From Myxococcota bacterium (GTDB lineage: Bacteria > Myxococcota_A > UBA796 > UBA9615 > JAKLKC01): 41,743 nt of DNA. Shown here one piece after another: positions 17,279 through 29,962 of the stretch. The DNA lies in contig JAKLKC010000055.1 of NCBI GenBank assembly GCA_023150875.1, positions 1-41,743 on the forward strand, given 5' to 3'. Each line of letters opens with the position of its first letter. Within the stretch, counting starts at the first letter, position 1. Made by a program: the position numbers and the translations under genes. Under the pieces are notes generated by a model that did no database searches, had not been told where the DNA came from, and saw only the letters and a program-made list of their open reading frames with translations.

Positions 17279-19060
17279 CTACCCCCCGCCCGGGGGAGGC
17301 CCTCCGCCCCCCGCCGCGCCCTTGGGGACCTCGATCCGCTCGAGGTACACGGCGAAGGACGGCCGCTCCACCCCCACGATCAGGGGCCAGTCGGGGGACC
17401 GCAGGAGCCGGTACTGGCCTTCGCCGTGCTTGCCCTTCGCGACCACCACCGGCAGGTCCACCCGCCTGCGCCCGGCGGCGTCGTCCAGGGACACCGAGAA
17501 GTAGGAGCGCCCCTTGGGGCTGATGGAGTCGGGACGGAGCGCCGAGGCGTCGTCGAGCCCGATCCCGCGGCCGGCGAGGAGCTCCCTCATCACTCCGCGC
17601 CCGAGCCACACCGAGGTCGCCCCCACCGTCTCCACTTCGTCCGGTGGGGCGTCCCCGAAGAAGTCGGAGTGGGACTGGGACTGGGCGAAGACCTCTGCGG
17701 GTACGCGCCGCCTCCCCGACCGGCCGTCCTCGGCGGCCCACGCGAACGTGATCCCCCCTCCGCCCACGTCCTCGATGGTGACCACGAAGTCCTGGAGCGA
17801 CATCTCCCTCCACAGGGTCGCGCCGGGGCGGCGGCCCTCGTACTGCACCAGGGCGTAGTGCAGCCGGGTGCCGGCGGCCATCCACGGGACGTCGGCCAGG
17901 GGAGGCGGCGCCGGGGGCGCGCCCGCGGCGCCCGCGAAGGGGACGACCTCCACCCTCGGCGCCGGTCCGTCCAGCCGCAGCACGACGACGGACCGGGCCG
18001 CCGCGCTCACCCCCGCCGACGCCGGGGCCCCGGCGAACGTCTCCTCGGCGAGGGTGGAGCCGTCGGTGGACGAGAGCACCACGAAGCCTTCCCGGTTGGC
18101 GAAGACGTCGTTCACCCCCTCGACGTCCATGGCCGTCGGCGGCGCGGCGCCCGGCCAGGGCCGCTCCCAGAGCACCGTCAGGTCCTCGGACCGGAGGGCT
18201 CCGATCCGCACCTTCCCGCCCGCGTCGGTCGAGAAGAACAGCAGGTTGCGGGGGGAAGGCATGGCGGGGACCATCCGGGGCACCGGGGCGATCCACAGGC
18301 GGTCCCCGGTGAGGGCGTCCACGCCGGACATCCACGCCCTGTGGGGCCTCACCAGCACGGCCCCCCCCGTCTGGACGGCCGTGAACGCCGCGGGATCCCC
18401 GGCCGTCGTCCACAGCACGCCGGGCAACTCGCTCCGGGCTTCGAGCCCCGCGGCGTCGTGGGCCGCGATCCCCGGGATCCCCTGGCCGCTCCTCTCGCCG
18501 ACACCGATCACCGTCCGCTCCCCCACCGCCTGCGCCGTCACCAGCGAAGCCGCGCCCAGGGGCAGGTCCCCCCGAGGTGCCCCGGTCCCAGCGTCGAAGA
18601 CCCGCAGGCGGCCGTCCGCCGCCGAGGCGTACACGCGCCCCCCCGCCAGGACGACGACGCCCAGGGGCGCGTCGACCTCCCTCCTCCACACCTCCTTCCC
18701 GTCCCGCGCGTCGATGGCGGCCAGGACCCGCCCGGCCCCGACGAGGGCCAGGGATCCGTAATGGTCGTACCAGAACGGACCGTGGAAGTCCGGCCCGTCC
18801 CTCCTCCGCTGCCAGGCGACGCTCCCGTCGGACCTCACCCCCGCCCACATCGCCCCCGTGCCCTCGGCGGACTCCGGCCACGCCAGCACGTGGACGTCGC
18901 CCGCGGCGATGAGCGCCGGCGGGGCCAGGCCCGGGAACACCTTCACGACGAGGTCCACGGGCAGGCTCGCCGCCCGGACCTCGCCGCCGGCGAGGACCCC
19001 GACGACGAGCGCCACCGCCGCGAACCCGATCCCCCGCGTCAACCGGCCCCGCTTCCCCAT
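17279..19060 (-). CDS. Secreted PQQ-like beta-propeller protein
   Basis: The 593-residue protein starts with a Sec signal peptide (cleavage likely after GGEVRA, near residue 30). Residues about 60-350 contain repeated PQQ/WD-like blades with the DxxTG-W or DARDGKEVW pattern (DARDGKEVWRREV, DAGTGAPRGDL, DALTGDRLWIAPV, SSTDGSTLAEE). The last 200 residues form a different beta-rich domain (GTRLHYALVQYEG to AVYLERIEVP) and end in a Gly/Pro-rich tail. Propellers of this sort scaffold envelope complexes or bind quinone cofactors; no catalytic residues are evident. ATG 19060 has gagga 6-7 nt upstream. It is divergent from the nucleotidase-barrel gene. Confidence 0.72.
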   Translation of the reverse strand: MGKRGRLTRGIGFAAVALVVGVLAGGEVRAASLPVDLVVKVFPGLAPPALIAAGDVHVLAWPESAEGTGAMWAGVRSDGSVAWQRRRDGPDFHGPFWYDHYGSLALVGAGRVLAAIDARDGKEVWRREVDAPLGVVVLAGGRVYASAADGRLRVFDAGTGAPRGDLPLGAASLVTAQAVGERTVIGVGERSGQGIPGIAAHDAAGLEARSELPGVLWTTAGDPAAFTAVQTGGAVLVRPHRAWMSGVDALTGDRLWIAPVPRMVPAMPSPRNLLFFSTDAGGKVRIGALRSEDLTVLWERPWPGAAPPTAMDVEGVNDVFANREGFVVLSSTDGSTLAEETFAGAPASAGVSAAARSVVVLRLDGPAPRVEVVPFAGAAGAPPAPPPLADVPWMAAGTRLHYALVQYEGRRPGATLWREMSLQDFVVTIEDVGGGGITFAWAAEDGRSGRRRVPAEVFAQSQSHSDFFGDAPPDEVETVGATSVWLGRGVMRELLAGRGIGLDDASALRPDSISPKGRSYFSVSLDDAAGRRRVDLPVVVAKGKHGEGQYRLLRSPDWPLIVGVERPSFAVYLERIEVPKGAAGGGGPPPGGG

Positions 19061-19142
19061 GGAGATCTCCTCGTCGCCCCGCGCGCCGACGGGGCGGGCG
19101 CCCGACCCCGCCGATGACGAGCGCCCGGGCGTCGTGTCGGCC

Positions 19143-19244: not shown

Positions 19245-22200
19245 ATGCCCCGCCCCCCACTGCCCCCCCTCCGCCTCGCCGTCGCCGCCCTGCTGGCCGC
19301 GGCGCTCCCGCTGGCGCCCGCCGGGGACGTGGCGGCCGAAGACGTCGCGGACGCCGGCGCCGGGCAGCCGCCGCCCGGCGACGCCTCGCCCCCCGCCGCC
19401 CAGGGGACCCTCGTCCCCGCGGCGGGCTCCCCCGGGAGGAGGCTCGTCCGCATCGTGTACGACGGCGAGACCGGGGGGATCTCCTCGGGGCTGGCGGACC
19501 TCTCCGGCGCGGGGCTGCTCTACCGGGCCGCGAAGGAGGGGGGGGCCACCGTGGAGGCGCACCAGGCCACCCTGGGGGCCCTCTATCGAGAGGGGCGCTG
19601 GCTCTGGGCCGCGGGGGAGGCCACCCTCGAAGGGGCCACGTCCTTCCTCGCCGGCCCGGCCCTCGCCCCCGCGTCGCCCCCCGTCTCCGTCCCCATCCTC
19701 GACGGGGTGGACGGGGTCCTGCTCGCCCTCCCCACCGCGCCGGGCGCCCCTCCCCCGGATCCCGGCGCCCATCCGCTGTTCGTGGCGGGGCGAGGCGAGG
19801 GTCGCGAGGCCCGTTCCGGCACCCTCGCGCTGTGGCGCGCCGGGGACGGGAGGGAGGCCTGGGTGCTGGACACCCGCGGTGGGGACGGCCGCGCGGCCCT
19901 GGAGCCCGATCCCAACGCCTGGGAGGTGCGGGAGCGTGTCAGCCTCGGCGCGCGGTTCGCCACCGGTCCCGAGGACCTCGTCCTGCTGGCCAAGCGCGTG
20001 GGCGAGGGGACGCGGCGCAAGGCCGCCGTCCAGCGGGAGCTCGACGCCGTCCCGGAGGTCCCGGCCCTGTACGTGTCCGCGGGGGGCGCCGTGGAAGGGG
20101 CCTCGTTCCTGCGGGACCACGCCACGTCCCTGCACCGGCCGTACTCCTGGGAGGGCTATGGCGAGGCGCGCCTGCGCTTCCTCGCGCCCTCCCTCGCCGA
20201 GCTGGTCCCCGGCGTCGCCGCCCTGGCGGCCGAGTCCGCGGCGGCGGGCGTCGAGCTGCTGTCGTGCAACCTCGTGGATCCCCAGGGGAACCCCGTCTTC
20301 GGCACCACCGCCACGGTCGAGCTGGACGGCGTGAAGGTCGCCTTCGCCGGCCTCACCGATCCCTCCGTCTGGCCCCTCCTGGGCCCCGAGGTGAGGGCCC
20401 AGGTCGCCGTGGCCGAGCCCCTGCCCGCGCTGGAGCGATGCCTCGATGGGGTGGAGGCCGACCTCGTGGTGCTCCTCGCCACCCTGGCCCACGACACCCT
20501 CGCCGAGGTCGCCGGCCACGTCACCGGGGTCGACGCCGTGCTGGGGGACTTCTCGTCCGGCCTCGCCTCCGGGCGCGTCGAGGAGATCGTCGCCGCCCCC
20601 GAGGTCCCGGGCGGCCTCCCCCGGGACCGGCGGCGCCCCCTGCTGATCTCCCGCTCGTCGGGGGCCACCTACGGCGTGCTCACCGCCTCCATCGGACCGT
20701 ACAACACATTGGAATCATTGGAGAACCGCATCGTCACCCTGCCCCAGGAGCTGCCCCCGGACGACGGCCTCCTCCGGCGGGTCATGGCCATCCGCCAGCA
20801 GGTGTACCGCCAGTCCGAGGACGTGCTGATCCCCGATCTCGCCTCCCTCCCCGGTGGGGCCGCCGCCGGGGGCGCCGCGGCCGAGAGGCTGGACTACCGC
20901 CGCTGGCTCAACCTCGCCGGGAACCTCGTGCGGCGGAGCACCCAGGCCGACGTCGTGATGCTCCCTCCCCTTCCCTGGCCCTTCGACCTCTCCGGCCCCA
21001 CAAGGGAGATCCAGGCCCTGGCCTCCCTCGCCGTCCCCGATCGCCTGGTCTCCGTCCACGTCCGGGGCGACCTGCTGCGCCGCCTGCTCCTGCTGGCGTG
21101 GAGCGACGAGGGGACCCCGGACCGGGACTCCGAGTTCGGCGCCGACCTCCGCACCCGGGCCGGGCGGGCCGCCCCCATGGTCGCGGGCGCCGAGATCGGG
21201 GCGCGGGACATCGCCGCGTGGAAGGTGCGGGGCGGCGCCATCGCCGACGCCGAGACCTACCACGTCGTGCTCACCGACCGGATCGCCACCCGCCCCGACT
21301 TCGCCCGGATCCTGAGCGGCTCCAGGCTGCGAAGCCGGTTCCACCGGGCCCCGGGCGGCAACCACCTGCCCGCCCTCCTGGGCGGACGGGAGCTGGCCCT
21401 GAGGGACGTGGTGTTCCAGGGTCTCGCCTCGCTGCGGGAGCGGCACCCCGACTTCTCGCCCCGCTACGCCCGCCAGGTGCGCGCCCTCCTGCCCGGGTAC
21501 GGCGGCCAGGCGGAGCCCGCGGTGGTCGCCCGCCTGGACACCGCCGCCTTCCGCCTGCTGTGGAACCGTTCCTACGTGCCCGATCCCGACGCCTACGCCC
21601 AGGTCCAGGAGCCCCGGGCGAGCGCCGTCAACTCCTTCGACGTCGGCTGGAACGTCCTGGGGCGCGTGGGCGTCGAGACCCCCCGCGCCAACTGGATGAA
21701 TGTCCTGCTGGCCACCTACACCCTCTCCCGCATCGAGGGGGCGGAGCCCGCCGAGACCCAGGACGACCTGGCCCTCACCACCGAGCTCCAGGTCAAGCCC
21801 GCCGACGTCCCCGTGGGCAAGGGCGTGTCGCTGTGGCCGGTGGTGAACTTCACCTACGACTCCGTCTTCGACCTGCTGGAGAACGACGAGCACCCCCAGC
21901 GGGTCCTCCGGGAGGGGGTGGGGCTGCTGGTGCAGAAGCTCTGGAAGGCCCTCCCCAGCCTCAGGATCGCGGCCTTCGCCGAGCAGGACCTCTCCGTTTG
22001 GGGGGATCCCGCCTGGCAGGCGGGCCTCTCCGCGGGGCTGGTCCACGAGTGGCCGATCAAGCCGGTGAAGTGGCGCACCGACGTCGGCTTCTTCTACTGG
22101 TTCCCGGTCCCCAGCCAGGACCGCGCCGACGACCTGTCCTACAGCCTGAACGTGAAGTCGACCATCGCGGTGCCCATCGCCGGGTCCCTCGCCCTGTCCA

Positions 22201-22322
22201 CCTGGGCGGACGCGCTGCTCTTCCAACGCAAGGGCCTGGGGGAGGACCCGCCTCCCCCCGGGCTGTCCCTCATCGTCGGGGTGGACATCGGGTTCTCGGG
22301 GAGCCTGAGGGCCCGGTTCTGA
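19245..22322 (+). CDS. 5'-nucleotidase-like pseudoenzyme fused to C-terminal beta-barrel
   Basis: The 1025-residue protein has a signal peptide (about 1-31). Residues 200-450 resemble the end of a metallophosphoesterase domain of UshA type (VELLSCNLVDPQGNPVFGT, VKVAFAGLTDPS), but the metal site GGHTH is replaced by GDFSS near residue 435 and no DxH or NHE motif was found. Residues 560-690 resemble the 5'-nucleotidase C-terminal domain (LVSVHVRGDLLRRLL, YHVVLTDRIA). From about 793 to the end is an antiparallel beta pattern ending in ARF, the terminal Phe typical of outer-membrane barrels. The likely role is a surface nucleotide-binding or structural protein; activity is doubtful. gagga lies 4 nt before the ATG. 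Confidence 0.68.
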   Translation: MPRPPLPPLRLAVAALLAAALPLAPAGDVAAEDVADAGAGQPPPGDASPPAAQGTLVPAAGSPGRRLVRIVYDGETGGISSGLADLSGAGLLYRAAKEGGATVEAHQATLGALYREGRWLWAAGEATLEGATSFLAGPALAPASPPVSVPILDGVDGVLLALPTAPGAPPPDPGAHPLFVAGRGEGREARSGTLALWRAGDGREAWVLDTRGGDGRAALEPDPNAWEVRERVSLGARFATGPEDLVLLAKRVGEGTRRKAAVQRELDAVPEVPALYVSAGGAVEGASFLRDHATSLHRPYSWEGYGEARLRFLAPSLAELVPGVAALAAESAAAGVELLSCNLVDPQGNPVFGTTATVELDGVKVAFAGLTDPSVWPLLGPEVRAQVAVAEPLPALERCLDGVEADLVVLLATLAHDTLAEVAGHVTGVDAVLGDFSSGLASGRVEEIVAAPEVPGGLPRDRRRPLLISRSSGATYGVLTASIGPYNTLESLENRIVTLPQELPPDDGLLRRVMAIRQQVYRQSEDVLIPDLASLPGGAAAGGAAAERLDYRRWLNLAGNLVRRSTQADVVMLPPLPWPFDLSGPTREIQALASLAVPDRLVSVHVRGDLLRRLLLLAWSDEGTPDRDSEFGADLRTRAGRAAPMVAGAEIGARDIAAWKVRGGAIADAETYHVVLTDRIATRPDFARILSGSRLRSRFHRAPGGNHLPALLGGRELALRDVVFQGLASLRERHPDFSPRYARQVRALLPGYGGQAEPAVVARLDTAAFRLLWNRSYVPDPDAYAQVQEPRASAVNSFDVGWNVLGRVGVETPRANWMNVLLATYTLSRIEGAEPAETQDDLALTTELQVKPADVPVGKGVSLWPVVNFTYDSVFDLLENDEHPQRVLREGVGLLVQKLWKALPSLRIAAFAEQDLSVWGDPAWQAGLSAGLVHEWPIKPVKWRTDVGFFYWFPVPSQDRADDLSYSLNVKSTIAVPIAGSLALSTWADALLFQRKGLGEDPPPPGLSLIVGVDIGFSGSLRARF

Positions 22323-24084: not shown

Positions 24085-24594
24085 TCAGAGCCGCACCAGG
24101 AACATGACGTTGCCGGCGGCGCCGTGGTCGGGGGTGAAGGTCTCGGTGTCGAAGGTCTGGTCGAAGTCGACCTGGAAGCCGAAGCCCGCGGGGCCCTTGG
24201 GGAACACGTGCAGGCCCACCGACTCGTGGAAGCCCAGCAGCGAGGTCCCCGCCGCGGAGCCGCCGCCGATCCCGCCCCGAAGCGCGATGCGCCCCTTGGG
24301 CAGGGGCAGGTTCAGGCCCAGGTTGAAGTAGCCGAGGGCGTAGTTGTCGGCGCCGGCGCCGAACACCGGGGGCTGATCCCGGAACTCGCCGCCCAGGGTC
24401 AGGATCCCGAGGCGGAGGTCGGCGTTGACGCGGACGTCCAGGGTGGCCGGCCGCCAGTCCTTCATCGAGCCGCGGGCGCCAGCGCCGACGCCGAGGTCGA
24501 AACCGATGGGCAGGGCGGCGGCGGCTGGGCGGGATCCCGCCAGGAGGGCGGCGGTGGCGAGGGCCGCGGCGAGGGCGAGGGGAGAAGGGTTCAC
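24085..24594 (-). CDS. Small exported beta-barrel-like protein
   Basis: The 169-residue protein has a signal peptide ending in SRPAAA (near residue 26). The mature part alternates hydrophobic and polar residues in short strands (FDLGVGAGARGS, LDVRVNADLRLGILTLGGEF, ALGYFNLGLNLPLPKGRIALRGGIGGG, FGFQVDFDQTF), with FLVRL at the end, typical of an eight-stranded outer-membrane barrel of OmpA/OmpX size. No family was recognised. GTG 24594 has ggagg 5 nt upstream. It precedes the rluA-type gene. Confidence 0.65.
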   Translation of the reverse strand: MNPSPLALAAALATAALLAGSRPAAAALPIGFDLGVGAGARGSMKDWRPATLDVRVNADLRLGILTLGGEFRDQPPVFGAGADNYALGYFNLGLNLPLPKGRIALRGGIGGGSAAGTSLLGFHESVGLHVFPKGPAGFGFQVDFDQTFDTETFTPDHGAAGNVMFLVRL

Positions 24595-27613: not shown

Positions 27614-29962
27614 TCAGCGCCCCCAGTCCGCCGGCGCCCCGGAGAGCTCGAAGGCGAGCACGCCCCCGGAGGCGATCCGGTCGTGGGTGAGCCAGGGATC
27701 GGCCAGGGGCTCGCCGTCCAGGGCCGCCGCGGCCACGTAGGGGGCTTCGGCGCCGGCCCCCGGGGCCTCGATCGCCAGGTCGCCCCCGTCCAGGTGCAGG
27801 GTCGCCCGCGGGAAGAGGGGTGCGCCCACCCAGTAGCGGTCCGTGCCCGCCACGGGGTAGAGCCCGAGGGCCGCGAACACGTACCACGCCGAGAGGGTCC
27901 CTCCGTCGTCGTTCCCGTCCAGGCCGTCCGGGCCCAGGCGGTACTTGGTGTCCATCACCCACCTCACCCACCTCTGGGCCAGATCGGGGCGGCCCGCTTC
28001 GACGAACAGCCACGGGGCGTGGATGTCCGGCTCGTTGCCGTGCCAGTAGTAAGGATCGAAGAGGGCCGTGTCCGCCTGCTGGGCCGAGAGGTCGAAGAAC
28101 TCCGAGAGCCGGGCGACGAAGGCCTCCTCCCCGCCCATCGCCTCGATCAGCCCCGGGGGGTCGAAGGGCACGGACCACACGGTCTGCCAGGCGTTGGCCT
28201 CGGTGTACCAGTCCTCCCAGGTCACGTCCGAGGCGCGCTCCGCCCAGGTGCCGTCGGCGAAGCGCCCCTCCAGGAAGCCGGTCTCGGGGTCGAAGAGGCC
28301 CCGCCAGCCCCGGGACCTCTCCCGGTAGCGGGCGGCGTCCTCTTCCCGGCCCAGGGCGTCGGCCAGCAGGGACAGGGCGTGGTCGTCGTTCGCGTACTCC
28401 ATCGTCACCGACGTGGCGCCCCCCACCTCGTCCGCCGCGCACCAGCCCCGCTCCACGTACCCCTCCAGCCCCGGGCGCCCCCCGTAGCCCACCCCCGGGG
28501 GGAGGGTGCCGTCGGCGCCGGCCACCATCCCCTCCCAGGCGGTCTCGACGTCGAAGTCCACGATCCCCTTGAGGTAGGACTCGGCGATCACGATGGTGGC
28601 GCTCTCCCCCACCATCGAGCCGCTGTCCGCCGTGCCCGCCGGCCACTGGGGCAGCGCGCCCCCCTGCTCGTACATCCGCACCAGGCTGATCACCGCGTCC
28701 CGCTGGCGTCCCGGGGCGAGGAGGGCCAGCAGGGGGTGCTGGGTGCGGTAGGTGTCCCAGAGGGACATGTTGGAGTGGTACACGAAGCCGTCGGCGACGT
28801 GGTCCTCCCCGTCGAAGCCCCGGTAGGAGCCGTCGGCGTCGGTCAGAACGTCGGGCATCAGCATGGAGTGGTACAGGGCCGAGTAGAAGATCCCCTGCTC
28901 CTCCTCGGTGCCCCCCTCCACCTCCACCACCCGCAGCGCCTCCTCCCAGGCGGCCTCGGTGGCGGCGGCGACCTCGCCCAGCGACTGGCCCGCCACTTCC
29001 GCCTCGCGGTTGCCCCGGGCGGCCTCCACCCCGCGGAAGGAGATCCCCACCTCCACCGCGACCTCGCCCCCCTCGGGGAGGTCGAAGCGGAGCCAGGCCC
29101 CCACGTCGGCGCCCCCCTCGGCGGAGGGGCTCCCCTCGGCGAGGACCCCGTCGGTCCAGGTGCCGGACGAGGCGGGGGGCGGGTCGAAGCGGAGCGAGTA
29201 GTACACCACCACGCCGTCTCCCCGCCCCGCGAGGCCCCCCTGGTGCAGGGTCCACCCCTCCACCACCCCGTCCTCCGCCCCGACGTCCACCCGGGCCGAG
29301 GGGCAGGAGTTCTCGCCGAGGGCGTGGGAGGGGTCGACGATCACCACGGGATCCAGGCCCGCGGGGAAGGTGTAGCGGTGGACCCCCGCCCTCACGGTGG
29401 CGGAGAGCTCCACCCGGATCCCGGTGTCGTCCAGGGTGACGGCGTAGTACCCGGGGCGCGCCTCCTCGGTGTCGTGGGAGTAGGGGGAGCGCCACCCCTC
29501 CTCGTCGGTCTTCGCGCCGTCCATCCCCGAGGTGGGCATGAGCAGGACGTTGCCCAGGTCGGCGACCCCGATCCCGTGCAGGCGCACCTGGCTGAAGCCG
29601 TCCAGGTAGGCGTCCTCGTACCAGTAGCCCGAGCAGTGGTAGAAGCCCGGGGCGCCGAAGTCGGAGCTGCTGTCGGGACCGGGCCGCACCATGCCGAAAG
29701 GGGCGCTGGGACCGGGAAAGGCGCTGCCCACGCCGAAGCCCATGCCGCCCGTGCCGACGAAAGGATCGACACGATCGACGGCTCGCCCTTGAAATCCGGT
29801 CCCCGAATTGCCATCGGGAGTGGTATCGTCGTCGGCGACGTCGTCGTCGGCCGCGCCCGGGGAGGCGCAGCCGGCCGCCGCCAGGCACGCCGCGAGGCAC
29901 CCGGCGGCGGCGGCCCGCGCGGCGCGGGGTGGAACGGGCGGAGTGCGGTACGGTGCGGGCAT
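27614..29962 (-). CDS. GH92 alpha-mannosidase-like lipoprotein
   Basis: The 782-residue protein has a signal peptide with lipobox LAAAGC, a short Asp-rich linker ([10 protein letters not shown]), then the GH92 fold from [27 protein letters not shown]. Diagnostic GH92 segments include [24 protein letters not shown], a [15 protein letters not shown] loop and the [23 protein letters not shown] motif, where the acidic pair binds Ca2+ and the catalytic base. GH92 enzymes are Ca2+-dependent exo-acting alpha-1,2- (or 1,3/1,4-) mannosidases that trim mannans or N-glycans. It sits on the envelope. ATG 29962 is the start nearest the signal peptide. Divergent from the RecQ-type helicase. Confidence 0.9.

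What the first reader, a model, noticed from the sequence alone, without database searches (positions are those of the whole stretch)
19245..22322. Metal-less 5'-nucleotidase-like domain fused to a putative outer-membrane barrel
UshA-like landmarks are present, but the GHTH metal motif reads GDFSS and no DxH or NHE is found, so catalysis is probably lost. The C-terminal 230 residues look like a barrel ending in Phe. A nucleotidase fold fixed to its own barrel is unusual and may act as a surface receptor or nucleotide-binding adhesin.
Basis: partly seen in the sequence, partly recalled or inferred. Interest (0 to 1): 0.6.

Follow-up and report, generated by a model that had tools for sequence, protein, structure and literature searches.

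The report
Dead nucleotidase on outer-membrane barrel
This gene makes an outer-membrane barrel protein that carries a former nucleotide-cutting enzyme which has lost its metal site; many Myxococcota share it, so the old enzyme has probably been reused as a structural or binding part.

Summary
Window 19245-22322 (+) encodes one intact 1025-residue protein: signal-like N-terminus, UshA-type metallophosphoesterase fold (with a ~170-residue insertion after its first strand), 5'-nucleotidase C-terminal domain, 26-residue linker, and a 12-strand outer-membrane barrel ending in Phe. Structure prediction plus PDB search puts residues ~61-735 on the UshA/CD73 fold; a homologue modelled at pLDDT 82 shows the same architecture. 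Profile alignment to metal-intact UshA proteins confirms that the metal/catalytic positions are gone in the window protein and in its family (33 rows: N116 and H117 0; H252 0; H254 1). It is not one damaged gene but a phylum-wide pseudo-nucleotidase/barrel family (barrel found in 51 of 377 Myxococcota genomes searched). A second clade keeps the pocket motifs without a complete metal site, which suggests stepwise decay. Best reading: a non-catalytic periplasmic UshA-fold module fixed beneath a small barrel, acting as scaffold or gate. That role is inferred, not shown.

The parts
19245..19322 (+). Signal-peptide-like N-terminus (residues 1-26; arginines, then a run of Ala/Leu)
   Evidence: Read from the translation; no signal-peptide predictor was run.
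19437..19478 (+). Strand 1 of the metallophosphoesterase fold (residues 65-78); place of the DxHG motif, here without D-x-H
   Evidence: Model strand 39-48 and VIA alignments that begin near model residue 38; G74 and G78 each in 28 of the 30 rows that reach it.
19479..20012 (+). Insertion between strand 1 and the rest of the phosphoesterase domain (residues 79-256)
   Evidence: 150-185 residues in 30 of 33 rows, the other three 45, 60 and 133 (three rows lack strand 1); low confidence in the window model, confident in the L057 model; absent from the second clade as read from its sequences.
20013..20807 (+). Core of the metal-less metallophosphoesterase domain (residues 257-521): G281 for D84, L317/A318 for N116/H117, E319 kept, T413 for H217, F436 and S438 for H252/H254 (E. 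coli UshA numbering recalled)
   Evidence: hhalign, ligand census, VIA Z 22.8, rmsd 3.3, 261 aligned to 3gve.
20910..21440 (+). 5'-nucleotidase C-terminal domain, degenerate (residues 556-732)
   Evidence: Pfam PF02872 E 0.0024, below cut-off; hhalign to UshA; VIA alignments reach about model residue 708.
21441..21518 (+). Linker between the UshA-like module and the barrel (residues 733-758)
   Evidence: 26 residues here, 16-33 in the 33 rows.
21519..22319 (+). 12-strand outer-membrane barrel (residues 759-1025), ends in Phe; conserved acidic residues E837, D840, D915 at the presumed outer ends of strands
   Evidence: Strands from the two models (strand 3 of the window, 817-831, is a helix in the weak window model and was placed by homology to L057); dyad test; Foldseek matches of the L057 model to OmpG and autotransporter barrels, E 1e-5 to 1e-4; conservation.

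Best explanation
The gene encodes an outer-membrane protein in which an inactivated UshA-type 5'-nucleotidase (metallophosphoesterase domain plus C-terminal domain) is fixed by a short linker to the N-terminal, periplasmic end of a 12-strand barrel. Supported by prediction and homology: the fold, the fusion, the loss of the metal site, and the conservation of the whole arrangement across the phylum. Inferred: the module sits in the periplasm directly under the barrel and works without catalysis, as a scaffold, gate or hand-over site for whatever passes or docks at the barrel, much as Vps29 reuses a phosphoesterase fold for binding. The conserved acidic residues at the barrel's presumed outer end are the likeliest contact with the outside (ion or ligand).
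For: Fold: Foldseek top hits are 5'-nucleotidases (2z1a E 5.8e-18); VIA Z 23.7 to E. coli UshA with 422 residues aligned (overall rmsd is large, 19.9) and Z 22.8, rmsd 3.3, 261 aligned for the phosphoesterase domain alone. Homologue L057: mean pLDDT 82.3, pTM 0.76, Z 23.0, rmsd 4.0, 431 aligned to UshA 1ho5. Metal site lost: N116 0, H117 0, H252 0, H254 1, D84 8, H217 5 of 33 rows. Family: 40 of 377 genomes at E <= 1e-25 with the full profile, 51 of 377 with the barrel profile at E <= 1e-8. Barrel: 12 strands in the L057 model, dyad pattern reached by 0 of 2000 shuffles; E837 and D840 33 of 33, D915 32 of 33. Neighbours shared only by small groups of loci, so it seems to act alone.
Against: No direct evidence for localisation or for any ligand. 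The window's own model is weak in the insertion and much of the barrel (mean pLDDT 58.3). The relative placement of module and barrel could not be inspected (no coordinates or PAE were available). The window itself departs from the family at one otherwise conserved acidic site (V874, E in 32 of 33). Scaffold or gate is a default reading of a conserved dead enzyme, not a demonstrated role.
Confidence: 0.5

Rival explanations
1. Autotransporter-like protein: the UshA-like module is a passenger carried through or with the barrel to the cell surface, where it acts as receptor or adhesin.
For: 12 strands and N-terminal placement match classical autotransporters (recalled), and Foldseek lists Hbp, EspP, NalP and EstA barrels among the barrel hits. 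A short helix precedes strand 1 in the L057 model (633-643).
Against: The porin OmpG scores as well or better in the same list; no autotransporter Pfam model was hit at E <= 10 (a weak test); the linker is 16-33 residues and the predicted helix about 11, short for crossing a barrel with the module outside.
Confidence: 0.2
2. Nucleotide or nucleoside receptor/channel: a Tsx-like pore with a pseudo-nucleotidase that captures nucleotides beneath it.
For: In a second clade of 11 proteins the C-terminal domain keeps the pocket motifs: GGD in 10 of 11 and an aromatic at the PFxN position in 10 of 11, and PF02872 scores E 7.4e-12 and 4.5e-11 in two of them. Tsx is a 12-strand channel (passage read in PMC6123736).
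Against: In the window's clade those motifs are gone: PFDN aligns with VPDR/AVPD and GGSGF with RPDFA. No Tsx model hit in Pfam. Neighbour genes are not nucleotide-uptake genes.
Confidence: 0.15
3. A catalyst with a new active site in the same cleft.
For: Strong new conservation in the phosphoesterase part: R257 31, R298 30, E319 31, N342 33, D430 33 of 33 and GD at 434-435 (G 25, D 26 of 33).
Against: These residues include no set of metal-binding histidines; several may simply hold the fold. No other enzyme family matched.
Confidence: 0.1
4. A decaying gene without function.
For: Loss of catalytic positions; two of the more distant relatives carry in-frame TAG codons (G245 one, G334 two).
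Against: The window frame is open over 1025 codons, and relatives at 27-32% local identity keep all parts in the same order; residues in module and barrel are invariant across 33 rows.
Confidence: 0.03

Closest known systems
UshA / CD73 / NadN 5'-nucleotidases (COG0737)
   Same: Two-domain fold and domain order; VIA Z about 23 over about 430 residues for the homologue model.
   Different: Metal and catalytic residues lost; large insertion after strand 1; fused to an outer-membrane barrel; substrate pocket lost in the window clade.
NCBIfam NF041198 UshA-like PCGU/PCGC proteins (including selenoproteins)
   Same: Best curated sequence match (E 8.5e-8, residues 319-433); a member-like protein in the same genome, L022, also lacks the usual metal motifs (read by eye).
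   Different: 31.2 bits against a cut-off of 275; no PCGU/PCGC motif; no CxxCH C-terminus; barrel instead.
Vps29 and other phosphoesterase folds used as scaffolds
   Same: Phosphoesterase fold used for binding (title of Collins et al. 2005 seen in the reference list of PMC7539009; otherwise recalled).
   Different: Eukaryotic, cytosolic, one domain, no membrane barrel; only an analogy.
Classical autotransporter barrels (NalP, EspP, Hbp, EstA) and porin OmpG
   Same: Barrel of similar size; Foldseek E 1e-5 to 1e-4.
   Different: OmpG has 14 strands (recalled) and no soluble module; autotransporter passengers are outside; no family-level sequence match.
Pfam DUF3078
   Same: Weak but repeated match at the same barrel segment in 7 proteins (E 8.4e-4 to 0.33).
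   Different: Never reaches the curated cut-off of 25 bits in the proteins scanned.

Membership tests
5'-nucleotidase / UshA family | UshA two-domain fold | tested here: met
   hhalign (by prediction).
5'-nucleotidase / UshA family | Two-metal site (DxH, D, NHE, H, HxH) | tested here: not met
   Census of 33 rows and the window residues. Ligand numbering of E. coli UshA recalled.
5'-nucleotidase / UshA family | Nucleotide pocket of the C-terminal domain (aromatic at PFxN, GGD) | tested here: not met
   Window and its clade. Second clade keeps each motif in 10 of 11.
5'-nucleotidase / UshA family | Pfam 5_nucleotid_C at its curated cut-off | tested here: not met
   18.4 bits against 23.6.
NF041198 UshA-like PCGU | Curated score 275 bits and PCGU/PCGC motif | tested here: not met
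   31.2 bits; motif absent from the translation.
Outer-membrane beta-barrel proteins | Even number of amphipathic strands closing a barrel, aromatic C-terminus, signal peptide | tested here: met
   By prediction only; signal peptide by eye.
Type V autotransporters | Autotransporter barrel family and pore-spanning helix | tested here: inconclusive
   No Pfam autotransporter hit; Foldseek fold similarity; short helix in the L057 model.
Type V autotransporters | Passenger on the cell surface | not testable with these tools
   Needs localisation experiments.
Tsx nucleoside channels | Tsx family sequence and nucleoside-binding sites in the pore | tested here: inconclusive
   No Pfam hit; pore residues not examined.
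DUF3078 | Curated Pfam cut-off | tested here: not met
   11.8 bits in the window, best 20.1 in a relative, cut-off 25.

The most novel reading that the evidence does not exclude
Myxococcota carry an undescribed class of outer-membrane protein in which a 5'-nucleotidase lost catalysis and became the fixed periplasmic module of a 12-strand barrel, with one lineage still holding the nucleotide pocket (ligand-gated or ligand-sensing) and the window's lineage having lost it and gained a ~170-residue insertion (pure scaffold or gate).
Probability: 0.4. Interest if true: 0.6.

Novelty: new variant of a known kind. Interest (0 to 1): 0.45.

Why it matters
It adds a family, matched by no Pfam or NCBIfam model at cut-off in the window protein, that joins a pseudoenzyme to an outer-membrane barrel, and it appears to preserve intermediate stages of decay (metal site lost first, pocket later). 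That makes it a test case for how periplasmic enzymes become structural parts, and automated annotation could easily mislabel its members as 5'-nucleotidases.

Tried and rejected
Chance resemblance was rejected by profile comparison, structure search and full-length relatives. A conserved operon was sought: among the 40 gene clusters printed, shared neighbours occur only in small groups of loci (a DNA ligase and a Rho gene near the three same-order copies, DUF1385 and RF-1 genes near two of them, a protein kinase gene near three others, an M16 peptidase gene near a few), none suggestive of a pathway. The divergent PQQ_2/BamB-like gene next to the window gene was not in any printed cluster. A tree of the UshA part (66 sequences, 390 columns) did not settle whether the two barrel-bearing clades share one fusion event: the 33-member clade has support 0.64, the 11-member clade 0.99, and they are not sisters under midpoint rooting. 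Published description was sought with eight searches that ran; no listed title or abstract start describes a UshA-like protein fused to an outer-membrane barrel, but the library is open-access only and the terms were few. The first genome-contig scan with the window protein alone found no relative. The fold lists are dominated by nucleotidases, so the absence of other folds for the insertion or the barrel means nothing.

Rows left out: of the relatives, the 33-row census omits L046 (no ORF found by my pattern), fragments (G001, G068, G282), interrupted genes (G245, G334), G034's copy is included as L040, and L086/G093 (barrel only) and L098/G081 (matched only in the UshA part) are omitted. The UshA control set keeps 11 of 21 loci, those whose reading frame contains GNHE.

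Full report
What is there. The window gene at 19245-22322 (+) is one open frame of 1025 codons and the only match in its 6.9 Mb genome assembly.

The fold. Curated sequence models see only traces: NF041198 (UshA-like) at E 8.5e-8 and 5_nucleotid_C at E 0.0024, both under their cut-offs; no meaningful solved structure is found by sequence (one hit at E 0.082). An AlphaFold2 model of residues 27-1025 from nine sequences has mean pLDDT 58, but mostly 74-93 over the phosphoesterase core and up to 89 in parts of the C-terminal domain. Foldseek returns 5'-nucleotidases first; VIA-align gives Z 23.7 to UshA and Z 22.8 with rmsd 3.3 over 261 residues for the phosphoesterase domain alone. A homologue, L057, models much better (mean pLDDT 82.3, pTM 0.76), matches UshA at Z 23.0, rmsd 4.0, 431 residues, and shows a 12-strand barrel with separate hits to OmpG and autotransporter barrels.

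The missing metal site. Against 11 UshA proteins with GNHE, from related genomes and the window's own, hhalign aligns 416 columns at E 3.4e-17. At the ligand positions the window has G281, L317, A318, T413, F436 and S438; strand 1, placed by the model and outside the hhalign range, has no D-x-H. Among 33 rows (window included) N116 and H117 are never kept, H252 never, H254 once, D84 in 8, H217 in 5; the glutamate of NHE is kept in 31. Other residues became invariant or nearly so: R257, R298, N342, D430.

The barrel. Residues 759-1025 form 12 strands. Hydrophobic/polar alternation is reached by 0 of 2000 shuffles in both the window and L057. With 12 strands both ends lie in the periplasm, so the N-terminal module does too unless it is exported through the pore (inference). 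Acidic residues at the presumed outer ends of strands are strongly conserved: E837 and D840 in 33 of 33, D915 in 32 of 33, and E at 874 in 32 of 33, where the window is the exception. One relative (L086) carries the barrel without a recognisable UshA part, so the barrel is a separable domain.

The family. With the full profile, 40 of 377 phylum genomes match at E <= 1e-25; with the barrel profile, 51 of 377 at E <= 1e-8. The extra matches include a second clade (11 proteins read) with the same domain order, E 7.3e-40 to the first by profile comparison over 690 columns, but without the insertion. It keeps fragments of the metal site (N of NHE in 5 of 11, D-x-H in 1 of 11, H117 in 0 of 11) and, unlike the window clade, the nucleotide-pocket motifs (GGD 10 of 11, aromatic at PFxN 10 of 11). 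This pattern suggests that catalysis went first and the pocket later. A tree could not show whether the two clades descend from one fusion.

Interpretation. The proposed role as surface receptor or nucleotide-binding adhesin is the weaker part: default topology, linker length (16-33 residues) and loss of the pocket speak against it for this clade. I favour a periplasmic pseudo-nucleotidase fixed under a small barrel, serving as scaffold or gate; the fold, fusion and metal loss are well supported by prediction and homology, the role is inference. Of the eight literature searches that ran, none listed such a fusion; I read passages of PMC2398784, PMC13188914, PMC7549365, PMC7539009 and PMC6123736 and otherwise only listings.

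Noticed in passing
own genome G000:C103:117458-118918 (L021): UshA-like selenoprotein candidate: reading TGA as U gives a PCGU motif followed by PKNPLGG; over the NF041198 cut-off (290 bits), with CxxCH heme-like motifs downstream.
   Followed up: partly
own genome G000:C103:210773-212197 (L022): A second, soluble-looking UshA-like protein (PCGC form) that by eye also lacks the usual metal motifs and carries CxxCH motifs; the genome holds both intact (L026, L027) and degenerate UshA proteins.
   Followed up: no
L086 (G093), C-terminal part of an 802-codon frame: The same barrel without a UshA part, preceded by a Glu/Pro-rich, probably disordered stretch.
   Followed up: partly
window 24085-24594 (-): Short secreted-looking protein that by eye resembles a small outer-membrane barrel; no Pfam match at E <= 0.01.
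   Followed up: no
window 17279-19081 (-): Divergent neighbour with PQQ_2/BamB-like repeats (E 4e-15); not in the printed shared clusters of the other loci.
   Followed up: partly
window 27614-29050 (-): Glycoside hydrolase family 92 catalytic domain (E 7.9e-153).
   Followed up: no
G245:C96:84924-87731 (L077) and G334:C155:3745-6765 (L083): Relatives with one and two in-frame TAG codons in draft assemblies: broken genes or assembly errors.
   Followed up: no
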